Assembly (NCBI GenBank): GCA_003008705.1 | Contig: PDUO01000114.1 | Coordinates: 6,040 to 70,039, forward strand | Source of the DNA: Pezicula radicicola | Lineage: Eukaryota; Ascomycota; Leotiomycetes; Helotiales; Dermateaceae | Length of the DNA stretch: 64,000 nucleotides | Direction: 5' to 3' | Shown here: in pieces, positions 12,480 through 34,885 of the stretch | Layout: the number at the start of each line of letters is the position of its first letter | How positions within the stretch are numbered: position 1 is the stretch's first letter | The notes under the pieces: generated by a model | Seen by the model: only the letters and a program-made list of their open reading frames with translations | What the model was told of the DNA's origin: nothing | Databases searched by the model: none | Program-made: the position numbers and the translations under genes

Positions 12480-12984
12480 TACAGGTCAAATACAAACAGC
12501 AGCAGAATAGTGATTTTGTTGGTGGGACAAAAGCTTCTATGATCTTAAACACAAGAGAGTCAAGAGAGGATGCAGAAACTGTAGCTGGACTTAAAACTTC
12601 GTAAACCCCGCAAAACGGTTTTGGCGCTAAAACACAACCTAGGTACTCAGCGACCCTAAGCTACTCGATTAATCAACAGTATTGTTCTTGAAACCACGGG
12701 CCTCGGAATACAAATCGTGCAGCAAATGCCGAGCCCTGGTATGGGCTTCCTCGGTCACGGCCCGAGGCCCGAGGGTGAGCACAACCAAGAAAGCTAGTGT
12801 CTTCAACACCAAGGAATTGAATGCTAACCAAATGTTTGCAAGTGCTGCTCTCTTTTGTTTTGTTCAAGTTATACATCCCCCATGGGCCGCCTATCACAAA
12901 CTCCCTACCTTATTTGCACACTCCGCACACTCCACGCATTCCATCATTGTTTTCTCGAGATCCAGGAAACCAAAATTACAAAGA
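12480..12984. promoter_or_regulatory. Divergent promoter, AKR / carotenoid oxygenase
   Basis: The 505 nt between the AKR start (12479, minus) and the preferred oxygenase start (12985, plus) must drive both genes. The oxygenase frame stays open upstream to 12682, so part of this region could be coding if an earlier start is used. It is rich in short CACTCC repeats near 12920. I recognise no specific operator. Confidence 0.5.
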
Positions 12985-15133: not shown

Positions 15134-18027
15134 ATGGAACGCTCTATTTCACGGCTCAGCCGGAAGCGTGCGCCCACAGCCTGCTTTTCGTGTCGCACTC
15201 GCAAGGTTCGATGTGATGTGTCCCAACGCCGCGGTAAACAGTGCACAAACTGCCAGCTTGACCAAGAAGAGTGTATTGTTCAAGAACCAAGACGGCTGTA
15301 AGTTGAATACCTCGGTGAACATACCCTCCTCTCATTAATTGCTGCGGTGGTGTTGCGCTTATATTCACCTATGTCGCCATGGTGTTACAGAATCTTCGGT
15401 GACGGGGCTAATTTTCTTTTCATAGGCCTTCTACGATAACAAGAGGAACAATTTCAGCTACGAAACATAGAGACAATCGGTTATCATCGGCGAAAAGACT
15501 TCCAGTGGAGGACACCCTCGTTGAATCATTCGCACCGTCACGGTCTCCTCTGGAACGAATGTCTCCCGTTATAAATTTGGAAAGTGAGCACGAGACATCG
15601 TTTTCTCTTGCTACTACTCGTTGGGACGGGAATTTTGAAGCGGTTAGTTTCAATTCGAAGAGCGAAAGATTTGAAAGTGCAAAATCAGCATCGATGAATA
15701 AAGAATCTCAGGCAACGGCCGATTCCAGATTGAAGACGTATCAAGGTGTGAACACTGTGGCCTGGCCATTTTCGGGTACGTCTTATAAGCCTTTGCAGGG
15801 TATTTGTCTAGAAACTAACAAGTGGCCCTTCGTCCCAGATACGACTAATGGTTTTCCAGACCTTGACTTCAATGCTGTGGATTTTGATGCCGTCCCCAAA
15901 ATATGCCAGGAGTTTAATTCACCCTTGAATTTAAGTGTACCATACACTGATTATCCGTTCATTGCGCTCGAGAGCATGTCGCACCTGTCATCGCAAGATA
16001 TCGGCTTCTTAAAGAGCCAAGGGTGTTTCGATATTCCTTCAAAGCCAATATTAGATCATTTCATTCATCAATATTTCCTTCATGTCCATCCGAATTTACC
16101 ATTGATGGACGAAAAAATCTTTTGGGACACATATATGGGCAGCAATCAGGATGATCCAGAACCTGCCCTGATATCTCTATTTCTCTTCCAAGCCATGCTC
16201 TTCGCAGCTTCAGGCGTATGAGTGCAACCATATGGGATTCACAAGGCATTCCGGAAGCTGACATATTGCGTAGTTCATCCCTGTGAGTGTCGTCAATATA
16301 CTAAACCTATCAGATCCTGGCCGAGTGGGAACAACATTTTATCGCCGTGCAAAAGTAAGTAACGTACTCATTACTTTCCAAGAAGTCTCAACCTTCTCAT
16401 GACTTCTCCTGCAGCTCCTCTTTGATTTTGAGTGCGAGATCAATCCTATGTCCGTCGCCCAAGGATCGTTACTGTTATCCCACCAGCAACAAGGTGGCCG
16501 AGTTCGAAAGACAAATATATTTTGGCTTGGAATATCTATTCAGAATGCAAAGATTGCCAGGGCTCACCAATATCGCACTGATGCTGTTTCTCAGCTGGCT
16601 CAGCGAAACCCCTGCAAGCGCCTGTGGTGGTGCTGTATTGTACGCGATAGAGCCTTAGCACTTGGATTGCGGGTACCATTACAAATAACCCCGGATTGCT
16701 TCGATATTAGTGTCGATTTGTTGACTTCCCTTGATCTCCAGAGCGACATCGAGCATTCAAAAGTTTATAGCAGTACCACGAAACGACTCCTCGTGGATTT
16801 ATTTGTTGGTCAGTGTGAGCTTGCCGTCAAGCTCACTGATGTCATTCTGATTACCTATCCCATCAATGAACATTTGCCTTCTATGAGCGAGGATAGACTC
16901 AATGGAGCCTTTGCTACGGTGGAAAAGTGTAGATCTGGCCTTTCAGAATGGTTTGAGAGCGCGACGATACGTTTTCCAACACCAGCAGGTCTCGGAGACA
17001 CACATTCATCAGTTATTTTGTATACCAATCTTTTATACATACTGTTTTAGTGAGTCTTATTCGGCGATATTAGAGGATAATTGCTCACCCTCCTTGATTT
17101 TAAAGCTCGGGTCGACTGGCATTATGTCACTATGAAATTCTCTTGTCCCAAAGGACCACAGTCCAGGACGATGGTCACAAGAAACTCTTAAAAAATAGCA
17201 GTTGTGAGATTCAAGATTCAATTTCTTGCGTCACGGAACACACGAAAGAGCTTATACAGCTCAAATTGACTCGATACATACCTTTTAATGCGTGAGTTAT
17301 ACCCAAGCCAAAAAAATGTGAGTGGTTAAACGGCCCAAATCTAATAATACTGCGAAGGATGGCCCATATCACACTGCCATTAGTTTTACATGCACTTGAC
17401 GTGGCCCTCGCATCTAACGCTTCTTTGACAGCGTTGAAACAGCATCGTTTAGATATCTTCCTAGAAGCGATGAAAATCGATGAGCCTCAATACGAAGGAA
17501 TATCACTGATTAGAGATATCATTAGCAAGATGATGGCCTGCGTCAAGTTTGAGAATCCGCTGGCTAATTCTTGGCCATTTATTTCTCAGAATGCGCGACG
17601 CCATCAACAGCCGTCTTCCTCATTTTCAAAGGCTTCTAACAATTCCCAAGTATCAGTTAGTGGTTGGAGTGAGATGATTTTACTTCAGCCCAGCTGTTAT
17701 CTTCGACTCGTACTGACGATTAACCTCTCATTTTCCAGAGGCGAATTCCCAGACAACACCAACTTCCCGGCAAGTCTGCAAGGAGGAAGCAGTGTTGAGG
17801 ACATATTCTGTATTCCTCAACAACCTATCCACGATACGTCTATGCAAACAAACCTTCCCCAAGAAACTGAGGATTACAATATAAGCAAGCAAATTCCGCA
17901 CGACATCCAGAGTCCATCGTCATTCAGCGCAGAGCGCTTCAACCAGACTGACCCCGCTCTGACCATTGATATGTATTCCAGCTTGGAGGATATGCTGGCG
18001 ATGAATGTCTTTGATTTTGGCGGCTAG
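15134..18027 (+). CDS. Zn2Cys6 fungal transcription factor with Fungal_trans domain
   Basis: Six exons (15134-15297, 15426-16215, 16274-16354, 16415-17049, 17106-17291, 17358-18027) join in frame to 841 aa, all with GT..AG introns. Residues about 15-45 form the binuclear zinc cluster, ACFSCRTRKVRCDVSQRRGK followed by QCTNCQLDQEEC. The fungal TF domain is intact, with landmarks DPGRVGTTFYRRAKLLFDFE, IFWLGISIQNAKIARAHQY and CKRLWWCCIVRDRALALGLR. It acts in the nucleus as a DNA-binding regulator. It lies between the oxygenase/AKR pair and the RiPP cluster, and could regulate either. The 1.8-kb AT-rich gap toward the RiPP cluster makes the former somewhat more likely. No breaks were found despite the degraded neighbourhood. 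Confidence 0.9.
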
Positions 18028-19816: not shown

Positions 19817-20783
19817 ATGGCTCCTATCTTCTCGAAATCCATTTCTCCAACTCTAGAAAGAATGAACTATCAACGTTGCAGCCTCGAGTCCACTGCCTTG
19901 CCGCCAAATTCAGAAGAGCGTCTTCTCAGTGAATATGAACGAGACCTCAAATCAACAAGTCAGCCGGCCCGTGGAGGCAGATTACGCCTCTATATCGGGT
20001 TCTTCCTAGGCCTTCTTGGTGGCACGAGCCTTGTCGGACTGCCATGGCTTTATACAAATTTTTGTATTAACTACGGGCGCTCGTATCAGGTTACTGGGGA
20101 GTTAAATGGCCTGGTTCCCAATTGTGAGTAGATAGTGATTCCAAAACCACTTCTCTAATGCCCATCACCATTATCACAGTTCCTATTCAAAAAGTCAAAT
20201 TCGACGCGGATCATCTTGCCACTATCGACCATAAGACGGAAGAGTCGCAAAACGCAACTAGGGAGAATTGGTTATCATATATGCCTGGTACGCTATTGAA
20301 CCAATTCCAAGAAACAACGAACGAATTACTTAAGCTTTATGAAAGTCGGAAACGGCTTCATGAATATTGACGATATTACCGGCTATGAGCTACCCCCGCC
20401 TATGAAAAATCACGATGCGGATATCTACTCGTTCGCTTTTACGCATCAGCTGCATTGCCTGGTAATTTGCTTCTAAATGACACCTTAATCTTAGTGCAAT
20501 TTCTCAACGCTGACCCGGATCACAGTACAGTATAATGACCATGTACAATGGCCTCTTGGATGGGTCTGCAGATCGACCGACAACCTTCCAGCACATCGAC
20601 CATTGTTTCCGTTATCTTCGCCAGTCGATCCTCTGCTGTGGCGATACTGCTCTAGAGGGACAGAACCCGCGTAAGTCAAGCTTTGGCACGGACGGCACTG
20701 GCGCTATTCATCTGTGTAAGAACTGGGATCAGCTCTATAGTTGGGTCGAGGGAAGGAGGATAAATGATAACAAGGTCATATAA
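19817..20783 (+). CDS. UstYa/DUF3328 family oxidative cyclisation protein (UstYa-1)
   Basis: Members of this family take part in oxidative cyclisation of ustiloxin-type RiPPs. Four exons (19817-20123, 20180-20287, 20346-20461, 20526-20783) join in frame to 262 aa, the usual size. Layout: a short cytosolic tail, one transmembrane segment (LYIGFFLGLLGGTSLVGLPW, about residues 55-75), then a lumenal domain. That domain carries the two HxxHC signatures, THQLHC at the end of exon 3 and QHIDHCFRYLRQSILCCGDT in exon 4. It is the left-hand gene of the RiPP cluster, about 1 kb from the convergent precursor gene. All introns have GT..AG ends and nothing is broken. Confidence 0.92.
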
Positions 20784-21798
20784 ATGCGGCAACTTAAGTT
20801 TGTCGAGATTCTAGTGAAATCAGATTTAACATGATCTTATTTTGCCTAATTTAAAGGACCTGTTTTACCATCGTGTTTGTGTTTCTCTTGTGCACGAGAA
20901 GTTCTACCTTATATCATTTTATAGTTCAGCCGGTTAAAAGTTCTTATCTAGGGGAGGTTGTGTCCTAAGGGTGGAATATGAAGTGATAGCGTAAGCCTTC
21001 TCTTGTTTTCATTGTACTATCGACTAAGTATTTTGGGCGTGAGTTAGCACAAAAGCATATTAAGTAGTAGCCTACTAATTAAATAGAAGTGGAAAAGGCG
21101 TAAATTTCCTACATACTAAACTATGTGCGTATGTGACCATCATATGTAGTACACCGTAGCGGATGGACCCTTTCTCTAGTTAGTAACCTATGAGCCCTTA
21201 TTAGCCCTATTTAACAACTTTCTTACTCCAGGTAAATATACTTGTTTTGGTTGAAAATAGCCATACCTTCGTTACAAGTTCAGCAGGTTTTGCATATCAT
21301 GAAATACGAGCACAGAAAGCAATTATAACCAGCTTTTAGTGTGACCCCAAGACATCTTAGTGGCAATGCACGAAAAACACAAGCACATGAACCAATAGGT
21401 ATTAGTTTCCCTGGAGAAGACTTTTGTAATTGACCAGATGTGTTGTATCTAGTATATTGTATTGTATAAGGAATGTAGGTAGCAGTGCCGTGCTTACATA
21501 ACAAGATGATATAAAGAAACCGAGTATGTGAAAAACATTTCAGTTAAGCGAATGATGAGAATCAGATACAACCACGTTATCCCCCGCTTTCTGCTCTCCG
21601 TTCCCAAAACCTCCAAAGTAGTTCTAAATAAAAGAATGTCAGCCTCTTCACTCACAGTCACGAGGAAACAGAGGTTCTTCTAAAGGTGTGTTAAATCAAC
21701 AAGCAGCTAGGCAAGGCTGTGGTCTCTATCAGTAGCTATGATTCTCCAGATAACTTACTTCTTTTATTCGATTAGACAAAGAGTCTATAATCAAAGGT
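20784..21798. other. Intergenic region between convergent UstYa-1 and precursor
   Basis: About 1 kb between two convergent stop codons, presumably the 3' ends of both transcripts. One frame on the minus strand (21280-21504) has no motif and no splice context, and I do not support it. No repeat element is evident. Confidence 0.5.
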
Positions 21799-22265
21799 TC
21801 AATGACCAGCGTGACGTTTGTCAACATCAATGCCGCCAACATAGTCCTAGAAAAGAAACTATATAAGTATACATAAGATAAGACAACTATTCTTAAAGCA
21901 ACTTACTTCAACGGTTTGCCCGGCAGTGCCACGCTTATCAACGTCGATGCCACCAACGTAGTCCTAGAAAAGAAAGAATATAAGTATATACAGCTAATAC
22001 AACTATTCTTAAAACAACTTACTTCAACGGTTTGCCCGGCAGTGCCACGCTTATCGACATCAATGCCACCAACGTAATCCTAAGAGAGTAAGTTATAGGC
22101 AACGTAAGAGTTATCTAATAGCCAACTTACCTCGACGGTTTGCCCCGCAGTACCACGCTTGTCAACATCAATGCCACCAACGTAATCCTAAGAGAGTGAG
22201 TTATAGGCAGCGTAAGAGTTATCTAATAGCCAACTCACCTCAACGGTTTGCCCGGTGGTAGTACG
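21799..22265 (-). repeat. Tandem exon-intron repeat array of the precursor
   Basis: The array consists of 57-nt coding units separated by 51-60-nt introns. The introns fall into two kinds. Introns 2 and 3 (22188-22238 and 22080-22130) are both 51 nt and almost identical. Introns 4 and 5 (21964-22022 and 21847-21906) are 59 and 60 nt, Tyr-tract rich near TTTCTTTTCTAG, and similar to each other. This shows duplication of whole exon plus intron blocks. Most differences between coding units are synonymous (for example GTTGAG/GTCGAG/GTTGAA). Confidence 0.9.
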
Positions 22266-22386
22266 CTTGTCACAGTTACTTCCATAAATGCAAAAGGGCT
22301 AGGCACCTCCATACCTTGGAAAACACTGGTTTGGCCGTAACAGCGCCGCATAGCGCAACAACAAGCAGACACTTCCAGAACAACAT
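21799..22386 (-). CDS. Dikaritin-type RiPP precursor, secreted, repeat-per-exon
   Basis: Six exons (22386-22315, 22265-22239, 22187-22131, 22079-22023, 21963-21907, 21846-21799) join in frame to 105 aa. Exon 1 is a signal peptide (MLFWKCLLVVALCGAVTA, then KPVFSK). Exon 2 supplies an Arg that completes a Lys-Arg Kex2 site across the splice junction. Exons 3, 4 and 5 are each exactly 57 nt and each encode DYVGGIDVDKRGTAGQTVE. Exon 6 gives DYVGGIDVDKR plus a HAGH tail. All introns are phase 0 (49-60 nt) with GT..AG ends. Cutting at Lys-Arg would release four 17-residue peptides, each with one Tyr. A signal peptide with Kex2-bounded repeats beside UstYa and tyrosinase genes defines the dikaritin class. 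The mature core is inferred to lie in DYVGGIDVD. The product is unknown. Confidence 0.9.
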
Positions 22387-23448
22387 TGTAAGATGTAGGG
22401 TAGAGGCAAGAATAAGTTGTTGTAGTGTGTGATGATTAGGTGAATGATGATTTCACATATCAGGTTGGCCTCGATCAAACCTGAGGTCTCGAGTTGTATT
22501 TATACTAGCTGTTGCCCTGTATGTAGGGTGCTTTATTCGTTAGTTACAACCGTTATTTCCGTTGTGCGTCTTTCGCCGTAGTTTCTATCTAATTACTTGA
22601 CTCCGAGGATAAAATGTGACAGGTACTAGGGAACCAATGATTGAATAGATAAGTTGGTTTTGGCTGCACTCTAGAAAGTTAAATAGCACGGGAGTACATT
22701 GTACATGCCTATATGATTCGGCCCCACATCTGTGCTGTTGTAGGGGACGGTATCTACAACGTTACAATCTGTATATTCTTCATCTACTATTCGGTGTAAG
22801 GCCCTGGTAGATGGAATATTCGAGACAACGCACTGACACAAAAGCTAGATTATTTGGGCCTGTACGAAGTAGAATGAGTCCAGACCCATTTACCGCCCAA
22901 ATAGGTTGTGTGCATACGATCCTAGTCAACGCCGACTTACTTCCCAATGCATCTATGTTACTTTCCGACGCATTTGTATTTGCTGCAGGCGCTCCTCTAG
23001 ACAAGTAGGCCACGTCATAGCGGTTTAGAATAAGACATTTGCGAATGAAACAAAACTACAGAAAATACGGCAATCACAAATCACGCATTTGCCGGTGTGG
23101 AATGTACAAACGATACTTGACTATAGCCAAAACGGTCAGAAATCAGCTGAAAATTGACTCTGATATCAAAATTACCTGCTTCTTGTTAATCAAACCCACA
23201 CCTAAAAACCTCAAGGATACGTTCAAAGTCAATTTACACCAAATTAGCTAGTTTTTGTATTTAGCGTTGAAGGGAATAGATCCCGATATGGCGAAGCCTG
23301 GAAAGAAGAAAAAATGGTTAGGCATGAAGCACATACTGGATGTGTAGCACGGTATTTGCAGGCTGACCGGCGAAGAATCAAGATATGGAATTCGGAGTAT
23401 TCGAGCAAATTTGTAAACGATAGCAAGTTGTTGAGTTTGTCATGTGAC
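22387..23448. promoter_or_regulatory. Upstream region of the RiPP precursor
   Basis: About 1.06 kb between the precursor start and the 3' end of tyrosinase 1, both on the minus strand. A TATAAATA box lies at about 22498-22505, roughly 110 nt upstream of the precursor ATG, preceded by a palindromic CTCGAGACCTCAGGTTTGA region. Frames at 22780-23013 and 23039-23251 show no family features. Confidence 0.55.
22498..22505 (-). promoter_or_regulatory. TATA box of the precursor gene
   Basis: On the minus strand the sequence AGTATAAATACAACTC lies about 110 nt before the precursor ATG. Spacing and sequence suit a core promoter of a strongly expressed fungal gene. Assignment is by position only. Confidence 0.5.
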
Positions 23449-24852
23449 CTAACTATACCGGTAGCACAGCAAGCCATTCTCCGTATCCAAGAGCTTGGAG
23501 ACAGTGATATCAGGTATGAAACCGCCAAACATCACATAATCATGAATACTCCCTTCTCTGGTGGAGTTATACATGTGTTTTCCATTATACTCATAGAGCC
23601 GCTCCGCCCTCTGTTCCTGCTCCATTTCCACCAAAGACGGTCCATCTGGGCGTGATGAAGGAAGAAAATAGGATCTTTATCAAGAACTGTCAGTCAGCTT
23701 CCCATTACAAAGTGGACCCAGGTGAATGAATCGACTTGCCATTAGCAGCCGTCAGTGCCCGAAAGTCACCACTGATAGCTTGATGCATCTCGTTGTGCAA
23801 GAGAAATTCAATATGTCGGACAAGCCCGGCGTAGGTGTCGTTTCTCAACATTTTCCCTATCGACTCGGGATCGAATGGCTCGGTAGGAAACGTCCCCATA
23901 GTGCCATGGTTGTTGAAGCCTCGAGAGAGGCAGTGCTCCTCGTACGTGTGGTTATAGACTAACAAACGATGAGCCATCGCCTTAATATCTACTAGCTTCT
24001 TTTGAAGGGACTTACATATGGGTCGGAGGCCTGTGAAGGGCCCGTTAGTCACACAATGTCCCATCCCAACTGCCTCAGGGCCATTCGGATCTCCATCACC
24101 CCCAAATCCAATCTCTGGGTCCCAGATAGAAGAGTTGGCGAGATTCATCCAGTCTAGAGACCAGTCCCAGTATCTAGAACCAAAGATTAGCGCTTTATTA
24201 TACAGGTTATGAGGAGAAGTATCATAAATTGGCGTACGGCACTTCTCCACTGTAGTTGCAATGTTCCCTCAGATGGTTTCGCCACGCGTGCAGCGCATAT
24301 CTATGCCACGGCAAGAAAGCTGAGGAACGGTGAGCTAGTAACCGGGCTACTGTGTTATTTTCACTACTTCGCGACGAGTAACCATTGAGCACTTACACCA
24401 AGATCCAATAGTCCCGTGCAAGTATGCGTAGTCATCGTATAACGTGCCGTTAGGTCTCCAACGTGAAGGCACTCTGGCTAAACAATTGAAGGCGCCCACA
24501 AACTCAGCTTTTTCGTCAGGAGTCAAGGAGCGCCATTCACGCCTTATGGAAGGCTTTATACAGCCGGTTTTTGGTGGGTGATTTGAATAAAAGCCAACAA
24601 GAATGGCGATTACGGCTGCACCGATACCTACCATTGCAACACATGCCACAATTGCAACATGATGTTTCCGGCCATTCGTCCTAGAGAGTGTGGTATTCGT
24701 CAGAGATTATATTTCTCGTGGCCTAGGACTGTACCGCAGGTTATCACTCACGTCGTATTGTCTCTCTGTCTTTCTGTATCTGAATCGGTGGCCAGCGGCT
24801 TATAGCCTTGCTTCAGCAACGTTTGATACTTCTCCCATAGATTTTGGGCCAT
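23449..24852 (-). CDS. UstQ-like tyrosinase 1, frameshifted near the C-terminus
   Basis: Type-3 copper oxidase of the UstQ kind, with an N-terminal membrane anchor (VGIGAAVIAILVGF). Exons: 24852-24752, 24680-24397, 24334-24238, 24173-24016, 23958 to about 23716, then from about 23650. Copper A is seen as YLHGTIGSWSHRSSAFLPWH with RYALHAW after it; copper B as LLHNEMHQAI and DPIFFLHHAQMDRLWW. The intron before DPIFF seems to use a GC donor (GCAAGT). Just after the RLWWKW segment (near 23613) the frame is off by one base. The in-frame reading ends at a TGA (23532-23534) in unrelated sequence. The family C-terminus (RLYEYNGKHMY..., ending LCYRYS) continues in another frame to 23449. This is either a real inactivating deletion, a shortened but active enzyme, or a sequencing error. 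Confidence 0.8.
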
Positions 24853-25085
24853 TGTTCCTGTCTTGTTACTGTTAATTATTGTTGTTGGATATTTTGAAAG
24901 ACCAAAAAATCATACACCCCCACTGCATCAGACTGTGAGCAAGTTGGATTCAAGCATGCGACAGGGTTTCGAGGTATCCATAGGCAATTGCTCGGGATAC
25001 TGATGCTCCCCCGTTCGCTCTCGTATCTATTAAACTTTTATTCCACAAAATCTAGGGTTAGAATCCTTCGAAATACTACGCTTCA

Positions 25086-25250
25086 GGGGGGGTATTTTAT
25101 TCCCTGTTATGTTTTTCGGACTATACAAGGGCAGTTTCGCAGATGTATATGTAGGGGAAATCACGCAATTCTAGAATAACGGTAGAGAAGATACAAGGCA
25201 TGGGTATGAAACTTGTGCCTAATAACCGCAGTATAATAAAACTTTAAGCC
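25086..25250 (+). repeat. Dispersed repeat, copy 2
   Basis: Shares TTTTATTCCCTGTTATGTTT, an ACTATACAAGGGCAG word and TTCTAGAATAACGGTAGAGA with the copy at 18651-18793, in the same order and orientation. Substitutions are common, so the copies are old. Confidence 0.65.
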
Positions 25251-25335
25251 CTTTTTAGCCTCACACTACATCTCTTAATATACACACCCTTTTAACGACC
25301 CCTTCGTTCGGCAGCAGGTACCTACGCGTACTAAG

Positions 25336-25396
25336 GATGAATAAACATTAAATTTAACGTTGTTCGTCACCTAATAATTAATGTTTATTCATCCCT
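25336..25396. repeat. Palindromic hairpin, GGATGAATAAACATTAA arms
   Basis: The arm GGATGAATAAACATTAA (from about 25337) and its exact reverse complement TTAATGTTTATTCATCC (to about 25396) are separated by about 26 nt. It could be a tiny MITE or an intergenic hairpin. Confidence 0.7.
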
Positions 25397-26021
25397 AGTA
25401 TAAATATGTACTTATAAGGGTAAGCGAACATCCTTTTGAAAAATCCCAGAAACCAAATTAAGCGAGGACCAATAATAGTGATTACAGACCCTAAATTTAC
25501 GCTAGGTATACCTTCTTGCTTATCTTAGCTTATAATAGCGTACGGGAAGCTCGGCATTCTACTTCGAAAACCGCCTACCAACCGGAAGCTACGCTCCAGC
25601 GGGGGCTAGAAAACCATCGAGCCCCTTCAGAGACCGAAACTGCCAGCCGCAAACAAGAAAGCGATCTACTAATGGAGCAATAAACCTATCGAAGGAGACG
25701 GGGACTGTTTGTTGCACGTACACGTGTGATCCACTGGTGAGAGACATGGGAATTAGTAAAATGCTGGACATGTAACTTATTAGCCTGAGCGCTGAATACA
25801 CGGAGGTCCGCGAGGCTGGTTGAACAAACCCCTCATATTACGGTGATAAATAGAGCGATAATAGCAATGGCAACAGAAAAACTTCCGACAACTTGGTGCT
25901 AGGTATCTAATGTCATCAATCTGGTCTGATCAAAAGGGAACAGCCATGATATTGTAGGCGAATAGTACAGGCTATGACCAGTTTATGTGTTCTAACTATA
26001 ACACAGCCATCTCTGAATAGC

Positions 26022-27004
26022 CTAATGAATGCCACTGCCATTGGCCCATCTATGTTCCACAGCCCAGTCGTAAAGAGCATCCCAATCTAGACACTTATGC
26101 TGATAGCCCCATCCCTTGCTGACATGTTGTGTCGGGTTAGGCATCCATTCTAAAGTTGTGTCAGGATTACACATGATTGTCTGCCTCAAATAGTCCCAAC
26201 AATGGGACATATGAAGGATATCATCATCTGTGGACGTGCCGTTTAATGCCTTGAAGAAGCTGTCTTTCGATGCCCACTGCGTCTAGTTGTTAGATATATT
26301 TGACCAGATATCTTTGCCCAGGACTGCCAGTTCCATAGATAACCACTTACAACGCAATGCATCTGGTGGAATGCAGATACCATAGCATGTTGCTCAGGCA
26401 GGTCCTGGTGCAGCGATGGCATCTCCGGCAATACTGTTTCGTTTTTGACTATGACAAATCCGCGTCCCCCTGTGGCAGGCAAGTTAATTTACAATATTCT
26501 GAAGGGTTTACTTTCTACCCTATTCACTTGGATCGAAGACTCACTAGGCATCATAGTATCCCAAGCCTTCCGATTTTCCTCGTCCGGGGGCCGTCCATAC
26601 ATCCTGTTGAAGTAGAGGGTCTTCTTCACATGTACTAGTGTAAAGACTTAGTATTTCCCCGTAGATACAAAAACTAGATCTCACTTACTTTCTGGTGGAA
26701 GCCAAGATGGATGCGGGCTATGAACTTGATGGTCATGCTGCTTAGGTAAATGCGTACAAGTGTACGGGACGGATTCTTTGCCATTGAGAACAAAAAGAAT
26801 AACAACTATGATAATCAGAATCACGTTCAAGAGTGATGATAGTACAATAGCATCCTTCAAGCGGCTTTTCCGTGTTGCCCCTTCCTCGACGCAAGACCGT
26901 ACCCCGAGAAGCTGTTCTTTCTCAGTATCTGATACAGAGGAAATTGAAGATACGATCGTCGAGCCTTCCTCGTGAGAGTCACGCCGCTCTTGAGATGTTT
27001 CCAT
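26022..27004 (-). CDS. UstYa/DUF3328 family oxidative cyclisation protein (UstYa-2)
   Basis: Second UstYa-type protein. Four exons (27004-26689, 26634-26545, 26469-26351, 26282-26022) join in frame to 261 aa. The N-terminus is charged (METSQERRDSHEEGS), followed by one membrane segment (VILIIIVVILFVLNG, about residues 58-75) and the lumenal domain. The two signatures are AFHQMHC at the end of exon 3 and HMSHCWDYLRQTIMCNPDTT in exon 4. The positions of introns 2 and 3 correspond to those in UstYa-1, which supports common descent. In ustiloxin biosynthesis two such proteins act with a tyrosinase; the same gene content is seen here. No break found. Confidence 0.92.
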
Positions 27005-28400
27005 AGTGATAAATTGTTAGCTGAGTAGAGAGGTGAAGTCGATTTTGGCAAACAAAAGGATGAATTATAACGGCGCGCCAGGGAGACGTGGGTAGTCATG
27101 TACACCAAACAAACTAGAAGGTAGGGTATCTGCCTTCCGATTCCAACTACCGAGGCCATAATAGTGGGAACCTTGTTTACCACCGAAGTGGATGGAGATC
27201 AGATAACCGTAACCCAAGAGCTTCCTAAGTAAGGGCAACGCGCTACTTGGTAATCTACGGCAATACACCATTTTTAAGAATATTTCACAGTACACACATT
27301 TTTTTTTTAAAAAAAATATCTAAAGAATTCAAATTGGTTATAATATCTTATTCACCTTGGTACGATTTTCTAGATTTTATTATTTTGTTGCGTTGTTAAG
27401 TTATAATTAGTATGATGTTTTTTTTGTATAGGTGGTGTATTGCTGTAGAAATGGCGTGTTAGTGTAGCGCACGGTTATACAGTAAAGTCGTCGTGCCTCT
27501 GAGCGTCATTTACCGAATTTCTAACCTATGCCGCATGCCCTTGAAAACTATATAGTTAAAGAATTATAAATTCGATAATAACTTTCTAATACCTTATTCT
27601 ATTATAATTTGTTTGTTAGATAAATACTTTGTATTATAGAAGGATGATATATATAAACTTTTAGCTAATTATTATTTACTATATACTATATTATAATTAA
27701 ATTATAAAGAAGAGGTAGAAATATATTTTTCGGCTAAGGTATACTCGGGGTGTATTAGTACAACTCGGTAGCCTTTTTCCCGACTAAAGTTTATACGGCA
27801 CAGGTTAGAAATTCAGCAAATGGCGCTGAGAGGCACAACGACTTTAGTATGAGGGGTCAGCATTGACACAAGCTAGAGAAATCCCACTTTTGTCTAGACT
27901 TTGCGTCTCTCTATGCTGTAGTGCAGCCCTCATCACAATACAATAGTCCGTAATTAATGCTGTCACATTGAATGCTGTCTGTCACATTGAATAAACTTCC
28001 TCGCGAAGTCTAATGCAATATTCCCAGTCATCCCTTCCTCATTGCCAGGATTCAGTCCGGGGTCCTCGACGAGTTGCGGAAGAGTCCTCTGCAGAAGCCG
28101 CTTTGAATTTTTCATAGGTCGCGATCTGAGAAGACTTTGCTAACCCTCTCCAAGTCCCCACTGCTAACTTATTCACTATCACACCGGGTCTTCCGTCCAT
28201 GCTCTTCAAGACATTGAGACTAGTGTAGCGCTCCCAGCATGCCTTGTTTGTCAGCCAATCTGCAGCTATAGGGCAAATCTATTACTCAAAGGTCCACGAC
28301 TTTAGTAAAGGCACTTTATCAGGTGTGAGAACATTCGATATCTCATTCTTGGTTCTATTTGACCACGACTATCAAGTTCAACTCAAGCTATCGTGCCATA
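27005..28400. other. Divergent intergenic region with inverted-repeat element
   Basis: Between the starts of UstYa-2 (minus) and tyrosinase 2 (plus). It holds an AT-rich stretch (27300-27760) inside an inverted-repeat element (27482-27848) and about 550 nt next to the tyrosinase start that probably act as its promoter. The frames at 27065-27295 and 28244-28456 are not supported; the latter overlaps the tyrosinase start in another frame. Confidence 0.5.
27482..27848. mobile_element. MITE-like element with arms of about 54 nt
   Basis: The left arm (27482-27537) contains GTGCCTCTGAGCGTCATTTA and GAATTTCTAACCTATGCCG. Its reverse complement, with a few transition differences, lies at 27795-27848. 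The roughly 260-nt core is AT-rich and non-coding. It sits between UstYa-2 and tyrosinase 2. Confidence 0.75.
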
Positions 28401-29734
28401 ATGCATCTATTCAAGAAGTCATGGAGGTACCAGCCTCTGCTCAACAGCGAGAATAAGGATTCAGAACACGATGTACCTAAGCCATTTCTTGCGAAGAGGT
28501 CAGTGTGTGTCCTTGATCACTGAATGTTCCAAGCAGCCCTACATCAATGCATCGAAGGGGCCTTACTAACCCGTCACAAATAGGAGATGCTCCTCGAACA
28601 CAGTGGTGATAGTCCTTTCTCTCGCGCTCTCGCTTTCACTCCTCCTCGGCGGACTCTTCGAATGGGCCACAACAGGCCCGAAATGCCTGTATCCTCTATA
28701 TCGCAAAGAGTGGCGCTCACTCAACACTTCTGAGCAGCAAGACTATGTCAAGGCCGTGCAATGCTTGGCACACCATCCCTCAAGATTCTTCGACAACACC
28801 TCTCTTTACGACGATTTGACTTGGGCCCACGGGCATATAGGCAGCTACACCCACTACGCAGCTGCTTTTCTCCCCTGGCATCGCATGTTTGTCCATGTTT
28901 ACGAACAATTTCTGCGAGACATATGCGAGTACCAGGGGGCGCACCCGTAAGCTCAATTACTTTTCCACGATTGCGCGGGAACCTAACACAGGGAAATATA
29001 GCTACTGGGACTGGACGCTCGACTGGGAAGATATATCCAAGTCGCCCATCTGGGACTCAGTCCACGGCTTTGGGGGCAACGGCGACCTCGAAAGTCCGGA
29101 GATTCTGAACGGAGGGCACTGTGTTATTGATGGGCCCTTCGCGAACGTAAAGCGAGCGTGGCGGGTGGACCCTGCCGGTGAGTCTCACGTGGTCAAGTAC
29201 GAACCGCATTGCATTTCTCGCGGTTTTCTCGATCAGGACGACAACATTACGGATTTAGAGAGGAAAAGGATCCCCAAAATCCATAACCGGATCTCGCCTG
29301 AATATGTCAATATGACCCTGGCTCAGCCCGACTACGAATCATTCTTCCAAAAGTTTGAGGACGGGGCGCATAACGCTATTCCCTTGTTCATCCGTGGTGA
29401 CTGGATCACCTTCTCATCGCCCAATGGTTAGTATATGTATTCGTGCCTACCTTGGTAGGCCAGTTAGCTGATATTTGTTCCTATTTCAATTTGCTTAGAT
29501 CCTGTCTTTTTCCTCCACCACACCCAGGTGGACAGACTATGGTGGATTTGGCAGCAGCGAGATCCAGCCCATCGCCTCACGCAATTTCATGGCGCAACAG
29601 AAAATTTCCTACATCACATGGACAGTACTGGCGCTGCCATCTCGGACGTATTACCGATGGGCGGGTTGGTGCCTGACGGGACAGTAGCGGACTACATGGA
29701 TACTACAGGAAGAGGTCTGTGTTATGAGTACTGA
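28401..29734 (+). CDS. UstQ-like tyrosinase 2
   Basis: Type-3 copper oxidase. Four exons (28401-28498, 28584-28946, 29002-29426, 29499-29734) join in frame to 373 aa, matching the UstQ type. An N-terminal anchor (VVIVLSLALSLSLLLGGLF, about residues 38-57) places the enzyme facing the secretory lumen. Copper A: WAHGHIGSYTHYAAAFLPWH followed by RMFVHVYEQF. Copper B: FEDGAHNAIP and DPVFFLHHTQVDRLWWIWQ. The YWDWTLDW motif joins across intron 2. The C-terminus ends DTTGRGLCYEY, equivalent to the out-of-frame end of tyrosinase 1. The start at 28401 was chosen because exon 1 joins to exon 2 in frame at an AG|G codon with an ACTAAC branch point. It is likely the functional phenol-oxidising partner of the UstYa proteins. 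Confidence 0.93.
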
Positions 29735-30310
29735 GAAGAGACCTGATGTGCTACTGATATTCAAGTTGGTCTCATGTATTTCCTATCGAATGTCTCCGAC
29801 TAAGGTGGCGCAAGGAGCTAACATACGGACATATTGGTTAAGGTAGTGACGCGGTGTGGAAACCAGCACATGTTACGGCGGCAAATAAACAGTTATGTCT
29901 TATTATACTATGTCGTATAACAGAAGAGTAGAAATTCCCATTGTTAAAAAACGCATAAGGTTAATACACCATCAGTATCACAATGAATTAGTACATACAT
30001 GAAGTCGGGATATCAGTCAATTAAGCTAAATCGTTTTCATTTGCATTCTCTTAAAGGATTTTCCATACACAAAGTCATAAAATGGTCCTAAAATCTATCG
30101 ACCCTTAGACTAAAATGAAATAAATTGCATTAGGCGAAGTACTGAAGATGTCCAGAAATCATTATCACGTGGGATTATTTATGTACTACGGTGACATTTT
30201 TGTGACTCGTTAAAACAGTCGTGGATTATTAACGCGGTGTTGATTTGGGACGTTGCAGCCAAAGTCCGAATGCGAGCTCTTATTGTTCCCTGTAACGACC
30301 TCCCTGTATA

Positions 30311-30573
30311 CTCTCCCCCCCTCCCCCCTAAATAAAGGTTATTCGGTGGGCAGGTAGAACCAGCTGTCAGGGGGGTCTAACAAATAGAAAATACTACTTT
30401 CGTAGCCTGACAGGAGGCAGACCACTCGAACCTTCTTACAACAGACTAGATTTTGGCCTGTGCAACAAAGGCAGGCAAGGGCTTCTCAAGGGCTTCAACC
30501 ACTTAATGTATACCCTCTATCGCTCCGACCCGCTAGCCCACCGAATAAACCTTTATTTAGTGGGGTGGGGGGA
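30311..30573 (+). mobile_element. MITE family B, copy 1
   Basis: Ends are inverted repeats: CCCCCTAAATAAAGGTTATT then CGGTGGGC on the left, and GCCCACCGAATAAACCTTTA then TTTAGTGGGG on the right. The whole segment recurs in reverse orientation at 32965-33250 with clear similarity along its length. That makes this a family of at least two copies. No coding capacity. Confidence 0.8.
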
Positions 30574-30745
30574 GTCCCGAATATCCCTGTACAGCAAAAA
30601 CACTACCATTTTATTATTATAGGTGCCCAATAAATATAACAGTGTTACCGACAATGTCAATTATTTTAGCATACCGATTACCAGGTTGGAAATATTTATT
30701 GACACCCTCTCAATATAAGCTTCCGCGCCTTCCGAACTATATACA

Positions 30746-31248
30746 GTAGGTGGACATATGGGTGGATATAAGTCTATCCGGTACCCCTCTTTTACACTAA
30801 AACTTATACCTAACACTTTAAAGGTTTATAGTAAAGAAGAGACGAGCGTCGGCCCCCGGCTAAATCTTATAGTAAAGAAGAGATAATAAATTTAATTCTT
30901 TATACTAGACTTATTTATTTAATAGTTACTTATATTTTTATATTTTCGGATTAAAATTATAGGCTACTAGGATTAATCTAAAAAGATTGGAAATAAGAGA
31001 AGCTTATAATTTAATAGTTCTATACTAAAATTTACTTAAAAATTTACTATCTTAAATTACTTTAATTTTCTATAGTAATTATTAGATATAATTAAAATCC
31101 AATTTAGAAAAGTCTACTTTAAATACTAAAACGATTTACTAGTTAGATTTTTAGATATAGTTATAGCCTAAGTTTAAGTTATATACATAGATGTAGTAGG
31201 TAAGTTTTAGTGTAAAATCGGCTACCTGACAGACTTATGTCCACCAAT
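30746..31248. mobile_element. MITE-like element with AT-rich core
   Basis: The left arm (about 30750-30812) carries GGTGGACATA, TAAGTCTATCCGG and TTTACACTAAAACTTA. The right arm (about 31195-31246) is its reverse complement with transitions (TAAGTTTTAGTGTAAAATCG ... ACTTATGTCCACC). The core (30850-31190) is very A+T-rich and non-coding. Confidence 0.65.
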
Positions 31249-31567
31249 TGTAGTACAAGTTCCGACCTTTATTCGGTAGTAGCATTTACGACGCAAACGG
31301 AACTTCCCGTCGTGACTTAAGCTATTATTCTCGGTAGTTGTAGATAGTACGATTTCGAGAAACATCTCAACTTACTTGCCATGTCCTGCTGGGGGTTACA
31401 TAGTAGCGTAGTTCCTAGCGCCACTTAATTACCTGAGACCCCATCATCAAGACCTCTACATAATCATTCTATCAGCCCTCGGCCGCGGTTTCTACTTTGT
31501 TTCGGGTAATCGTACAAATCGAGGGTTTCCATACTTTCTCAGCTCAGCTTAACGCGAGGTTTGCATC

Positions 31568-32338
31568 ATGAAAGCAATCATCAAAGCAATCATGGCTCGA
31601 CGTTCAGGAGCATACGTCGGTTTAGACACTACGGAACGCCAGACACAGTCAAGGGGCTCGTCTGAGGACGAGTCTATAACGACGGAGGTGTGCTTAGAAG
31701 CGACACATAACAGCCAAGAACCCTCTTGGGAGTTAAAGGGTCAGCACAATAAGGCATGGTGGCAGACGGCCGCCTTAGTCGTGTTCCTCCTTCTTGCTCT
31801 CGCTGCTGGCCTGATATCATCCGCGGTAACGATGGGTTCCTTTGCGCATACCAGCACTACATCTGCTAGCACTACACCTGGCCAGATCTCTTTGGGCACT
31901 TGTGGACACTCAGCACAAGAAGCACATGAGAAGGGCTGCGTCTTCGACCTTTTCATGGGCGGGTTTTCCCACCGGCAGTGCTTCCATCAGGATCTCAATG
32001 ACCGATACGTAGACAAGTACGACTTGAGGTTCTATAGTGACATTGAGGGAATCGATGAGATAAGCAGAGAGGAGGTTATGACTGGGGACTGGGTTGAGCT
32101 CTGGCTCAACGGGACGTTTCACTACGCACATTGTGCTTACATGTGGGAGAAGCACCTTAGGGCGTTGAGATCTGGGAATAGTGTATTGGCGATGGATTCA
32201 CGCACTCGAGATGCTGAACATGTCATCCATTGCACCGACTTCATTGGACGGCCGAACGCGACGTACATTACTGGACAAGCCACTTCACACATCAAACAGA
32301 GTTGGCTTATAGAATGTATAGTCGGTCCTATTATTTAG
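31568..32338 (+). CDS. Single-pass membrane protein with CG..GC and HxxHC motifs, RiPP-cluster associated
   Basis: Single exon, 256 aa from 31568; a second ATG at 31592 (MARRSGAYVGLD) may be the true start. One membrane segment (TAALVVFLLLALAAGLISSA, about residues 68-88) precedes a lumenal domain. That domain opens with CGHSAQEAHEKGCVFD, then SHRQCFHQDL, and carries HYAHCAYMWEKHLRALRSG and HVIHCTDFIG. Two HxxHC motifs after one membrane helix recall UstYa proteins, but the rest differs. I believe proteins of this CG..GC type recur in fungal secondary-metabolite clusters, though no function is known to me. It is flanked by two oppositely oriented copies of MITE family B, and may be a third oxidative partner or a membrane scaffold. 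Confidence 0.8.
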   Translation: MKAIIKAIMARRSGAYVGLDTTERQTQSRGSSEDESITTEVCLEATHNSQEPSWELKGQHNKAWWQTAALVVFLLLALAAGLISSAVTMGSFAHTSTTSASTTPGQISLGTCGHSAQEAHEKGCVFDLFMGGFSHRQCFHQDLNDRYVDKYDLRFYSDIEGIDEISREEVMTGDWVELWLNGTFHYAHCAYMWEKHLRALRSGNSVLAMDSRTRDAEHVIHCTDFIGRPNATYITGQATSHIKQSWLIECIVGPII

Positions 32339-32964
32339 ATTAGGTTGCTAGTTGCAAATGGGTTTAGTTACAAATGAGTGTCTAAGCGGTTAGGGTACAA
32401 CGTAAGGGACTAGGTACTGATAAGGATCTTAGAATTGAGGTCTCTGAATAGATTTGGAACGCCTGGAGTCCAATCGTGTAGTACAGTGATACGTAAAATC
32501 TACAGCGCTATAACCCTTCTAAATTTATAAAGGGTAATAAATCTTTTAAATAAATCTATTAACTTAGATATATTTGATTAATACTTATTAATCTATAGTA
32601 AATTAATAACTAGAAATAATTATTATGTTATTATGTTATTACAGAATATCGAAATAATTTTATATAGTAAAAAAAAGTTAATGTATTGCTAGGAAGTGTC
32701 TGTGCCTTACTAACGTAGCGCGGTGCCTTTACTTTAGTAAGGCTAGGGTGGGCTTACGGTCAGACACAGTGAGCTAAGATAAGATTCCGTCCATACTATG
32801 AACAGTATAGTAGCCAATTTTATTCAGTTCAATGTAGTGGTAAAGTCAATTTCGACAGGTTGGCTATGCTTCGACGATTGGGGTGAACCGAGGTCGTTGG
32901 TCTCTAGACCCCGGTGAGCTTCGAATGTGGGGACAAATAGTTTTGAAACAGTGAAAGCCCTACT

Positions 32965-33250
32965 ATCCCCCCTCCCTCCTAAATAAACTTTATTCGGTGG
33001 GCTCTATGGGTCGGAACTATGGAGGGTATACTCTGAGTGGTTGAAGCCCCTAAGAAGCCCTTGCCTGCCTTGTTGCATAGGCTAAAATCTAGTCTACTGT
33101 AAAAACTAAGGCGTATATAGAAGGTTCGAGTAGCCTGTCTACCTGCTGACAGGCTACCAAATTACCGGTAGTATCTTCTATTTGTTAAGACTCCCCTGAC
33201 AGCTGGTTCTACCCGCCCACCGAATAACGTTTATTTAAGGGGGTGGATAG
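32965..33250 (-). mobile_element. MITE family B, copy 2
   Basis: Reverse-oriented relative of 30311-30573. Shared words include GTGGTTGAAGCCC, AAGCCCTTGCCTGCC, AAAATCTAGTCT, GAAGGTTCGAGT and TGACAGCTGGTTCTACC. Terminal arms again carry TAAATAAACTTTATTCGGTG and its complement. Copy 2 has a short extra segment near 33108. Confidence 0.8.
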
Positions 33251-33372
33251 TAAAGCTTACTTACTGTATTGAAAAGCTTCTACGGGTGCTTCGGAAGCTT
33301 ATTCGTCGTTCTAGTTTCCCGAGTACGAAGTACGACTGTGAATCCTTCGTCTCTCTGATGTTTTTTAAACTT

Positions 33373-33447
33373 CTATCCCGCCCCCTGAATGAAGCTTATT
33401 TTTTTGGCTTTTGCCACACATAAGCTTCGTTCAGGAGTGGGGGATAG
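33373..33447. repeat. Palindromic hairpin element
   Basis: The arms CCCCTGAATGAAGCTTA and TAAGCTTCGTTCAGGAG (plus flanking CTATCCCG / GGGGGATAG) form a stem of about 25 bp with a T-rich loop of about 23 nt. The arms resemble the ends of MITE family B, so this may be a minimal internally deleted copy. Confidence 0.7.
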
Positions 33448-33683
33448 TACTGTAGTTATCGCTGTCGCAGATGAAGCAATCTATAGTAGTGCAAAAAGAA
33501 TGTACACCCCTCCCCCTGCTAGCCCTCAGACCAACTACGTATTCTAGCCACTGTTTTGATGCTGATTTTTTATCCTAAATCTATCCTCTTTTATATTACA
33601 ACACCAGTTCAATAGCCAAATCACTATACTCACGAAAAGTCTTTTGAGATCTGACCTGTAATCGTTAAACCCCCGGATCCGCG

Positions 33684-34885
33684 ATGATGGCTATTAACGA
33701 TAAAGATCATCTTCACGACGAAGAATGGGATACACTTCTCAACGAGGCGCGTGGTCTAGGAAGAGCCCGAAAGAGCAGACTTCTGCTCTTCTGGCAATAC
33801 GCCGTAATTGGGTTGCTCCTTTCATCGTACCTCCTTCTGCTCTATTCCTACATACGAGACGTGCGCACCGCCCCCGGATTTTGCGTGAATGAATCGGAAG
33901 GCAAGTCTACGGAGTCTGGCAACATCATCGTATACTTACCGGAGGATGCAATGCAGTAAACTACTCGGATGCCTACGAGGCTGCAACACCAATAGCTCTG
34001 GCGGAATTAAAGTCTCTGCTTACGGTAGGAGTCTACGTGTTGATGGTAGACACCTGGCTACCATGGGATAAACACGAGCCTATCGATTATGGCAAGGCAA
34101 TCCAGCAGACCTTCTTCGAAGGGAAGGAGTATCGCGAAAAAATTCGCCCTACAATTTACCCTATTCTGAAAGCAATTAGCGAGCTGGGCCTTGATAATGT
34201 ACCTGATATGATGACATTCTTGCCCGACCCCGAAGACCCCGAGTTCCCGCTCCAGGCCTTTGGTCTACAGCTCCTACTTGATCAGGCACCTCGTTCCCTG
34301 TTGAAAGGTATTAACGTCCGCTGGACCTACGCCTACTTTGGTGAAATTTCGATCAGATACGTGCAGCAGTTGCAAGCACTCCCACCTCATCTGGACCCGC
34401 GTTCTTGGGAGCGCTGGAACGTCTCCGTTGACTATTGGGTCTGGACACGTCTGTACTGGGCGGCGCGAATCGTGCACAACGACAGATGGGCCGAGAAAGC
34501 CATAGCCTTTACAGAAGCTACGCGCGAGTTTGTGGAGCAGAAGTATCAGACACGAGATCCCTATCGTGACCATCCTGAGAAGCGATGGGATCTATATGGA
34601 TTCCCCAAGATGCTGTCCGAAGGTGCACCAAAAAAACCTGGTGTCGCCGAGGGCTTGTTCTGGTTGGCCTGCTTGATGGACGTTCACTACCCTCTTCTGA
34701 AGCGCTATGGTCGTTATCCCTATCAAAATGGTGCCTTCGGAAGGACCCCTACAGCTGATGAGGAAGAATGGTGCAATACGACAGGTTGGAACAAAATGTG
34801 TTGGCCAGAAAGCGCGGAACGCATCAGGGAGGATGTTGAAGCCGGGCGCTGGACCCCTTTAGGAACAGGAGAGCAAATGGGTTAG
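33684..34885 (+). CDS. DUF924-like protein with N-terminal membrane anchor
   Basis: Two exons (33684-33900, 33957-34885) join in frame to 381 aa. The 56-nt intron appears to use a GC donor (GCAAGT..CAG); the only GT alternative nearby gives a 27-nt intron. Residues about 35-58 form a membrane helix (FWQYAVIGLLLSSYLLLLYS). The lumenal part contains the DUF924-type core FGLQLLLDQAPRSLLKG, later YPLLKRYGRYPYQNGAFGR, which matches the family pattern DQxPR..G and RYP..N..LGR. DUF924 proteins are usually small soluble proteins of unknown biochemistry, so a membrane anchor pointing to the secretory lumen is unusual. Its place at the right end of the RiPP cluster, with the same anchor-plus-lumenal-domain layout as its neighbours, suggests a role in the same pathway. 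Confidence 0.8.

What the first reader, a model, noticed from the sequence alone, without database searches (positions are those of the whole stretch)
19817..34885. Undescribed dikaritin-type RiPP cluster
Seen directly: a secreted Kex2-repeat precursor, two DUF3328/UstYa proteins with paired HxxHC motifs, two UstQ-like tyrosinases, an HxxHC single-pass protein and an anchored DUF924-like protein within 15 kb. Known: UstYa proteins with a tyrosinase perform oxidative cyclisation in ustiloxin-type pathways. Inference: this cluster makes a new cyclic peptide. It lacks any visible P450, methyltransferase, flavin monooxygenase, peptidase or transporter, so the product may be only lightly decorated, and export and trimming may rely on general secretory enzymes.
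Basis: partly seen in the sequence, partly recalled or inferred. Interest (0 to 1): 0.93.

Follow-up and report, generated by a model that had tools for sequence, protein, structure and literature searches.

The report
Dikaritin cluster with glycine-recoded core
This fungal gene cluster encodes a precursor with a secretion-signal-like start and four identical copies of the peptide DYVGGID beside five relatives of copper enzymes, and it would likely make a new ring-shaped peptide, although the residue that closes the ring in ustiloxins and phomopsins is glycine here and one enzyme gene is broken in this assembly.

Summary
The seven genes reported are present at the stated coordinates. The precursor (105 aa, six exons by my model) carries four TVEDYVGGIDVDKR units. 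All 8 variable sites among the four core repeats are synonymous third positions, so the peptide itself looks selected. Two Colletotrichum proteins share VEDYVGGFDVD. Ustiloxin and phomopsin precursors carry EDYXI, whose Ile is the partner of the Tyr cross-link. Here that Ile is Gly in 8 of 8 copies (4 in the window, 4 in Colletotrichum), so the classical Tyr-Ile3 ether cannot form. I predict closure on residue 5 (Ile or Phe), or a different oxidation. The 'HxxHC single-pass' protein carries two HxxHC motifs and is a distant UstYa relative. The DUF924 domain has an N-terminal anchor that 77 of 78 homologues lack by hydropathy. A Zn2Cys6 regulator was missed just upstream. Two results count against an intact pathway: tyrosinase 1 loses its reading frame after the copper domain, and tyrosinase 2 lacks one copper ligand (His to Pro). 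Verdict: a real dikaritin-type (broad definition) RiPP cluster, outside the ustiloxin/phomopsin core motif, possibly decaying. New variant of a known kind.

The parts
15182..18027 (+).
   Evidence: CFSCRTRKVRCDVSQRRGKQCTNCQLDQEEC at 15182; Fungal_trans matches below cut-off (23) in ORFs 15412-16221 (12.8 bits) and 16403-17050 (20.9 bits), none in 17296-18027. UstR of the ustiloxin cluster is also a C6 factor (PMC4740483, passages).
19817..20783 (+). UstYa1, 262 aa, 4 exons (19817-20123, 20180-20287, 20346-20461, 20526-20783); HQLHC and HIDHC; marginal hydrophobic segment 58-78
   Evidence: PF11807 E 2e-21; model; motifs; hydropathy 1.64 against threshold 1.6
21799..22386 (-). Precursor, 105 aa, 6 exons; signal-peptide-like N-terminus, four TVEDYVGGIDVDKR units, C-terminal HAGH; phase-0 introns between E and D of each repeat
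   Evidence: synonymous-only variation; Colletotrichum homologues. The first intron (49 nt, no clear branch site) is the least certain; the KR at the exon 1/2 joint depends on it.
23532..24852 (-). Tyrosinase 1 (UstQ-like), hydrophobic segment 39-67, six of six copper His by motif; frame lost after the DRLWWKW motif, homologous tail in another frame
   Evidence: PF00264 E 1.3e-33 on residues 1-304
26022..27004 (-). UstYa2, 259 aa, 4 exons; HQMHC and HMSHC; hydrophobic segment 48-81
   Evidence: PF11807 E 1.2e-26
28401..29734 (+). Tyrosinase 2 (UstQ-like), 373 aa, 4 exons, hydrophobic segment 35-61; five of six copper His (CuB HxxxH reads HNAIP)
   Evidence: PF00264 E 3.7e-41; among solved chains the top scores are multi-domain hemocyanins, then catechol oxidase 4j3q/4j3p, E 2e-34
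31568..32338 (+). HXC: third HxxHC(x)nHxxHC membrane-type protein, 256 aa, one open frame, no Pfam match; remote UstYa relative
   Evidence: profile comparison with UstYa set: probability 82, E 1e-5, 65 columns across both motifs; model pLDDT 72.7, helices 183-201 and 216-226 each hold one motif
33684..34885 (+). Anchored DUF924 protein, 381 aa, 2 exons joined by a GC-AG intron; exon 1 encodes the anchor (hydrophobic 33-57), exon 2 the DUF924 domain
   Evidence: PF06041 E 5e-8; model of the exon 2 part pLDDT 92.7, nearest solved fold 2i6h, probability 1.00 but E 0.02

Best explanation
The locus encodes a Kex2-repeat precursor with four identical EDYVGGID units beside three HxxHC(x)nHxxHC (UstYa-type) proteins, two tyrosinase-family proteins and a DUF924 protein with a hydrophobic N-terminal segment, and it is likely a dikaritin-type RiPP cluster whose enzymes would oxidatively cross-link the Tyr of YVGGID to a residue other than the usual position 3, most likely Ile5, because position 3 is glycine. 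Steps. Shown by sequence: precursor repeats, synonymous-only variation, HxxHC pairs, tyrosinase copper motifs, one hydrophobic N-terminal segment in each of the six other proteins (marginal in UstYa1). Known from relatives: Kex2/KexB processing in the Golgi, copper- and O2-dependent DUF3328 chemistry in organelle lumens, tyrosinase plus UstYa/Yb forming the ustiloxin ring. Inferred: the precursor enters the secretory pathway, is cut at KR into 19-residue units, and the anchored copper enzymes act on these units in the lumen. Tyrosinase would oxidise Tyr, and a UstYa pair would activate the beta-carbon of residue 5 (Ile here, Phe in Colletotrichum) to form a ring of about 19-20 atoms instead of the 13 known for phomopsin. 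The DUF924 domain, fused to its own anchor, would be a lumen partner of unknown chemistry.
For: Genes and domains. Selection: 8 of 8 variable core sites synonymous. Conservation beyond this genome: P0001 (C. tofieldiae, E 1e-8) and P0002 (C. higginsianum, E 4.9e-3) carry VEDYVGGFDVD, two copies each. EDYXI is the shared core motif of ustiloxins and phomopsins (PMC6339444, passage), and Tyr and Ile are the cyclised pair (PMC7329392, passages), so EDYVG is a recoded form of that motif. DUF3328 proteins are binuclear copper enzymes with one anchor and a lumenal catalytic part (PMC12435403, abstract and passages). HXC is UstYa-related, and 7 of 14 HXC-like loci outside the window's contig lie within 5 kb of a UstYa match (P about 2e-12 against uniform placement). 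DUF924 exon 1 anchor: 1 of 78 homologues has a comparable N-terminal hydrophobic stretch, and no ATG stands at the homologous start (ORF).
Against: Tyrosinase 1 is frame-broken in this assembly. Tyrosinase 2 lacks one CuB His that TYR1 and 6 of 6 other own-genome tyrosinases inspected keep. Genome-wide, tyrosinases are not tightly tied to UstYa: 0 of 30 other loci within 5 kb, 3 of 30 within 11 kb. No methyltransferase, transporter or peptidase was found in the ORFs scanned. Closure on residue 5 is deduced only from what remains in the core; no relative with that link was found. In Colletotrichum only 1 of 4 core copies is followed by KR, and the genomic setting there was not seen. No expression or mass data.
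Confidence: 0.55

Rival explanations
1. A decaying dikaritin cluster: ancestrally functional, now non-producing in this strain because both tyrosinases are compromised.
For: TYR1 frame break with a conserved tail in another frame; TYR2 CuB His to Pro; two inverted transposon-like elements around the HXC gene.
Against: Core codons differ only synonymously; in my models the UstYa1, UstYa2, HXC, DUF924 and TYR2 frames are open; a one-position frame break can be an assembly error; the asperipin-2a cluster lists no tyrosinase (PMC6514808, passages).
Confidence: 0.3
2. The same enzymes act, but the product is not a ring: hydroxylated, dehydrogenated or DOPA-containing linear peptide.
For: DUF3328 members also hydroxylate and halogenate (PMC12435403); the Ile acceptor is missing in 8 of 8 copies.
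Against: Tyrosinase plus two UstYa is the set needed for the first cyclic ustiloxin intermediate (PMC6514808; PMC12048977); Tyr is kept in 8 of 8 copies.
Confidence: 0.2
3. The repeat gene is an unmodified Kex2 peptide (signal or pheromone type) that only happens to sit among UstYa genes.
For: Most Kex2-repeat genes (6120 of 7878) have no DUF3328 neighbour (PMC7329392); this genome has 38 UstYa loci.
Against: The precursor has the EDY flank of ustiloxin/phomopsin precursors, Tyr in every core, and two UstYa and two tyrosinase genes within 7.5 kb.
Confidence: 0.08

Closest known systems
Phomopsin cluster (Phomopsis leptostromiformis)
   Same: Kex2-repeat precursor, several DUF3328 proteins, tyrosinase; hexapeptide frame Y-V-x-x-I-D (antiSMASH query YVIPID, PMC7099791 passage)
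   Different: Core YVGGID lacks Ile3 and Pro4; no methyltransferase or transporter in the ORFs scanned; HXC and DUF924 present (whether phomopsin has these was not tested)
Ustiloxin cluster (Aspergillus flavus, Ustilaginoidea virens)
   Same: UstA-like Kex2 precursor, UstYa/UstYb pair, UstQ tyrosinase, C6 regulator nearby
   Different: YAIG/YVIG cores have Ile3; no FMO, P450, methyltransferase or PLP enzyme in the ORFs scanned here; four cores on four exons
Asperipin-2a cluster
   Same: Small DUF3328-based ring-forming cluster, Tyr-O to beta-carbon links, no tyrosinase listed
   Different: Core FYYTGY; one DUF3328 protein, a transporter and a reductase there (PMC6514808)
Hypothetical proteins of Colletotrichum tofieldiae (P0001) and C. 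higginsianum (P0002)
   Same: VEDYVGGxDVD block with Gly3-Gly4
   Different: Phe in place of Ile5, two cores each, only one KR among four copies; cluster context unknown
CctR (cyclochlorotine hydroxylase)
   Same: One anchor plus HxxHC(x)nHxxHC, helices carrying the motifs, as in UstYa1/2 and HXC
   Different: Acts on a non-ribosomal peptide

Membership tests
Dikaritin RiPPs (DUF3328 as class-defining enzyme, two HxxHC motifs) | DUF3328/UstYa protein(s) with paired HxxHC | tested here: met
   PF11807 77.3 and 94.3 bits, paired motifs; definition from PMC12048977 passage
Dikaritin RiPPs | Precursor with signal peptide and Kex2-delimited repeats | tested here: met
   signal peptide judged by hydropathy only
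Dikaritin RiPPs (older five-gene definition) | Tyrosinase | tested here: inconclusive
   Two PF00264 genes, but TYR1 frame-broken and TYR2 lacks a CuB His
Dikaritin RiPPs (older five-gene definition) | Methyltransferase | tested here: not met
   None over cut-off in the 39 sequences scanned; one below-cut-off Methyltransf_25 hit (19.1 of 27 bits) lies inside a dehydrogenase ORF at 61 kb. PMC12048977 notes functional clusters that lack members of this list
Dikaritin RiPPs (older five-gene definition) | Transporter or peptidase | tested here: not met
   None in the 39 sequences scanned
Ustiloxin/phomopsin type | EDYXI core motif | tested here: not met
   EDYVG in 4 of 4 copies here and 4 of 4 in P0001/P0002; motif from PMC6339444
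Ustiloxin/phomopsin type | Tyr-Ile(3) ether ring | not testable with these tools
   Position 3 is Gly, which has no side chain; product unknown
UstYa (PF11807), for the HXC protein | Pfam match over cut-off | tested here: not met
   No Pfam family up to E 0.1
UstYa superfamily, for the HXC protein | Single anchor plus HxxHC(x)nHxxHC and profile similarity | tested here: met
   hhalign probability 82, E 1e-5
DUF924 (PF06041) | Pfam match and fold | tested here: met
   33.7 bits over 27; best solved fold 2i6h, probability 1.00, E 0.02

The most novel reading that the evidence does not exclude
A lineage of dikaritins, shared by this fungus and Colletotrichum, has given up the Ile3 acceptor and closes its ring on residue 5 (Ile or Phe) across a Gly-Gly hinge, using three DUF3328-type copper enzymes and a DUF924 domain that was captured into the Golgi lumen by fusion to a new membrane anchor.
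Probability: 0.25. Interest if true: 0.75.

Novelty: new variant of a known kind. Interest (0 to 1): 0.5.

Why it matters
The partner residue of Tyr is Ile3 in ustiloxins and phomopsins, and Tyr and Ile are kept in all but 3 of 441 repeats of the related POI2-type precursors (PMC7329392). A conserved precursor with Gly there gives a direct test of whether DUF3328 enzymes dictate the site of closure or read it from the core. It also points to an HxxHC family without a Pfam match that sits near UstYa genes in this genome, and to DUF924, a family named in no paper of the library searched, as a possible RiPP partner.

Tried and rejected
Second precursor in this genome: the DYVGG codon pattern has 22 hits, 4 of them the window repeats, against 19 control hits. 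DYxIx(I/F/L)D has 22 scattered hits against 94 control hits, the closest two 6.1 kb apart. So no repeated canonical ustiloxin/phomopsin core was seen. A search with the Colletotrichum precursor found nothing, but it also missed the window's own repeats, so it shows nothing.

The 145-bp tandem repeat on C91 (L036:7256-7576), between two HXC-like genes, looked like a second intron-split precursor, but by eye no signal-like start or Kex2-spaced open frame was seen: rejected.

DUF924 next to UstYa: 3 of 3 DUF924 loci lie within 15 kb of a UstYa match (2 of 2 outside the window, P 4e-4), but the distance was chosen after seeing the data, one partner is a weak 25-bit stretch, at 11 kb it is 1 of 2 and at 5 kb 1 of 2 outside the window. 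Kept as a lead only.

The precursor's Pfam matches include YopE at 26.2 bits, just over its cut-off of 25, and three families below theirs; all four have zero stretches that pass on their own. I treat them as artefacts of a short repetitive sequence.

The HXC model found no solved fold (0 of 6 matches at E 0.001 or better). Rfam gave nothing in 15-40 kb, NCBIfam nothing for four ORFs. The DUF924 exon 1 found only itself in the genome. Paper searches gave listings that I did not follow up; two were too broad to tell whether intron-split repeats are known, so I make no novelty claim for that.

In one search L014, L015 and L018 were dropped because no ORF passed my filter; 5 ORFs plus TYR1/TYR2 were aligned. 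One search added one more.
Full report
What is there. The window lies in a 61-Mb fungal assembly of 152 contigs. The nearest named DUF924 relatives are Xylariales, so a xylarialean ascomycete is likely (inference). I built gene models by hand with standard fungal splice sites. Seven genes occupy 19817-34885: UstYa1 (+), precursor (-), tyrosinase 1 (-), UstYa2 (-), tyrosinase 2 (+), an HxxHC protein here called HXC (+), and an anchored DUF924 protein (+). Pfam supports five of them over their cut-offs. HXC has no Pfam family. The precursor has four Pfam matches without any stretch passing on its own, one of them (YopE, 26.2 bits) just over its cut-off; I treat these as artefacts of repetition. 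A Zn2Cys6 domain at 15182, followed by below-cut-off Fungal_trans matches, marks a regulator that ends about 1.8 kb upstream. Ustiloxin production depends on such a C6 factor, UstR, in PMC4740483 (abstract and passages).

The precursor. The 105-residue product starts with a hydrophobic signal-like segment and carries four TVEDYVGGIDVDKR units. Each core begins exactly at an exon start, and the three internal repeat exons are 57 nt in phase 0, so the array can grow or shrink by whole exon-plus-intron units without a frame change. Introns 2 and 3 are 94% alike, 4 and 5 are 87% alike, and the two kinds 58-63%, so the array probably grew in at least two steps. Among the four copies of the 33-nt segment DYVGGIDVDKR, 8 sites vary, all in third positions and all synonymous. 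If changes fell evenly, the chance is about 6e-6; with transitions only, 1.5e-4. Copies share ancestry, so these are rough. In the spacer, 8 sites vary too and the first copy differs in protein (TTT for GTA). The first intron (49 nt) has weak signals and is the least secure part.

Relatives. The protein search found two hits with E up to 1 among 5826 candidates: a C. tofieldiae protein (E 1e-8) and a C. higginsianum protein (E 4.9e-3; weak alone, but it shares its N-terminus with the first). Both carry VEDYVGGFDVD twice, preceded by T in 3 of 4 copies. KR follows one of these four copies. Their neighbours could not be seen with the tools here.

Why the core is odd. PMC6339444 (passages) states that ustiloxins and phomopsins share an EDYXI core. 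PMC7329392 (abstract and passages) states that Tyr and Ile are the cyclised pair in both, and that in the related POI2-type (G-10) precursors they are kept in all but 3 of 441 repeats. The present core keeps EDY and the later I/F-D but has Gly at the Ile position, in 4 of 4 copies here and 4 of 4 in Colletotrichum. Glycine has no side chain, so the known Tyr to Ile3 link cannot form. Residues with a beta-carbon left in YVGGID besides Tyr are V2, I5 and D6. Ile or Phe at position 5 alternates between the genera, and asperipin-2a shows Tyr-O to beta-carbon links in another core (PMC6514808, passages). I therefore predict closure on residue 5, a ring of about 19-20 atoms (my own count) against 13 in phomopsin (same passages). 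This is inference.

The enzymes. PMC12435403 (abstract and passages) reports for CctR two coppers per monomer at HxxHC(x)nHxxHC, need of O2, and a single anchor with the catalytic part in the organelle lumen; AprY and ApnU are likewise copper- and O2-dependent. UstYa1 and UstYa2 have both motifs, and so does HXC. A profile of 9 HXC-like proteins aligns with 6 UstYa proteins across both motifs (hhalign probability 82, E 1e-5). The predicted HXC structure (mean pLDDT 72.7) has an anchor helix and two helices that each hold one motif; it matches no solved fold. In this genome HXC-like matches form 15 loci; outside the window's contig 7 of 14 lie within 5 kb of a UstYa match, against 0.7% expected under uniform placement (from the six-frame matches). 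Tyrosinases show no such tie: 0 of 30 other loci within 5 kb, 3 of 30 within 11 kb.

Doubts about the tyrosinases. Tyrosinase 1 has all six copper His by motif, but its frame is lost after DRLWWKW; a tail like that of tyrosinase 2 lies in another frame. This may be an assembly error or a real break. Tyrosinase 2 is open over its full length in my model but reads HNAIP where tyrosinase 1 and 6 of 6 other tyrosinases inspected from the same genome read HxxxH (31 tyrosinase loci in all). Either the pair works together in an unusual way, or the pathway is decaying. The asperipin-2a cluster lists no tyrosinase, so a broken tyrosinase need not mean no product.

The DUF924 protein. The 14 homologues aligned all begin at the DUF924 domain, and query coverage is 55-81% in 78 of 78. 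The window gene has 72 extra residues from exon 1 with a hydrophobic stretch at 33-57. Only 1 of 78 homologues (P0032) has a comparable stretch in its first 120 residues, and no Met stands at the homologous start, so the two-exon fusion is the natural way to start the protein. Exon 1 found only itself in the genome. The domain model (pLDDT 92.7) is closest to 2i6h, a DUF924-type protein of unknown function (probability 1.00, E 0.02; no match reached 0.001). No paper in the library searched contains the word DUF924. Its role here is unknown; a lumen partner is a guess.

Hydropathy (19-residue window) finds an N-terminal hydrophobic segment in each of the six proteins beside the precursor, marginal in UstYa1; in the DUF924 protein a second stretch at 85-103 lies inside the domain. 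This is not a topology prediction.

Verdict. The cluster is a dikaritin in the broad, DUF3328-based sense but fails the EDYXI motif of the ustiloxin/phomopsin type, and no methyltransferase or transporter/peptidase of the older definition was found (PMC12048977, abstract and passages, which also notes functional clusters lacking some of these). All papers were seen as abstracts or passages only. YVGGID, YVGGFD and VEDYVGG occur in no paper of the library; it lacks most subscription papers, so 'not described' is limited to it.

Noticed in passing
30313-30574 and 32967-33246: Two copies, in opposite orientation, of an about 270-bp element with terminal inverted repeats (CCCCCCTCCCCCCTAAATAAA...) flank the HXC gene; the element matched 79 places in the genome (many only the terminal repeat), so it is a MITE-like family.
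   Followed up: partly
G000 contig C91:224-237 kb (L036, L037): A second UstYa locus with two HXC-like genes, a DUF924 gene (39% identical over 295 residues, no anchor in its ORF) and a tyrosinase fragment; no Kex2 precursor seen.
   Followed up: partly
G000 contig C86:289952-296964: Four HXC-like matches side by side 2.6 kb from a UstYa match: an expanded group of HxxHC proteins.
   Followed up: no
23675-23739 and 33901-33956: GC-AG introns in the models of tyrosinase 1 and of the DUF924 gene.
   Followed up: no
12673-14550: Long ORF matching RPE65 (carotenoid oxygenase family, 324.7 bits) upstream of the regulator.
   Followed up: no
40700-42085: Right flank ORF matching an alpha-L-rhamnosidase C-terminal domain (47.5 bits); a below-cut-off Glyco_transf_28 match lies at 38545-38904.
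   Followed up: no
54475-56229: Large ankyrin array (C2H2-like N-terminus by eye) whose 108-bp DNA repeats at 55673-56130 match at 92%, suggesting recent expansion.
   Followed up: no
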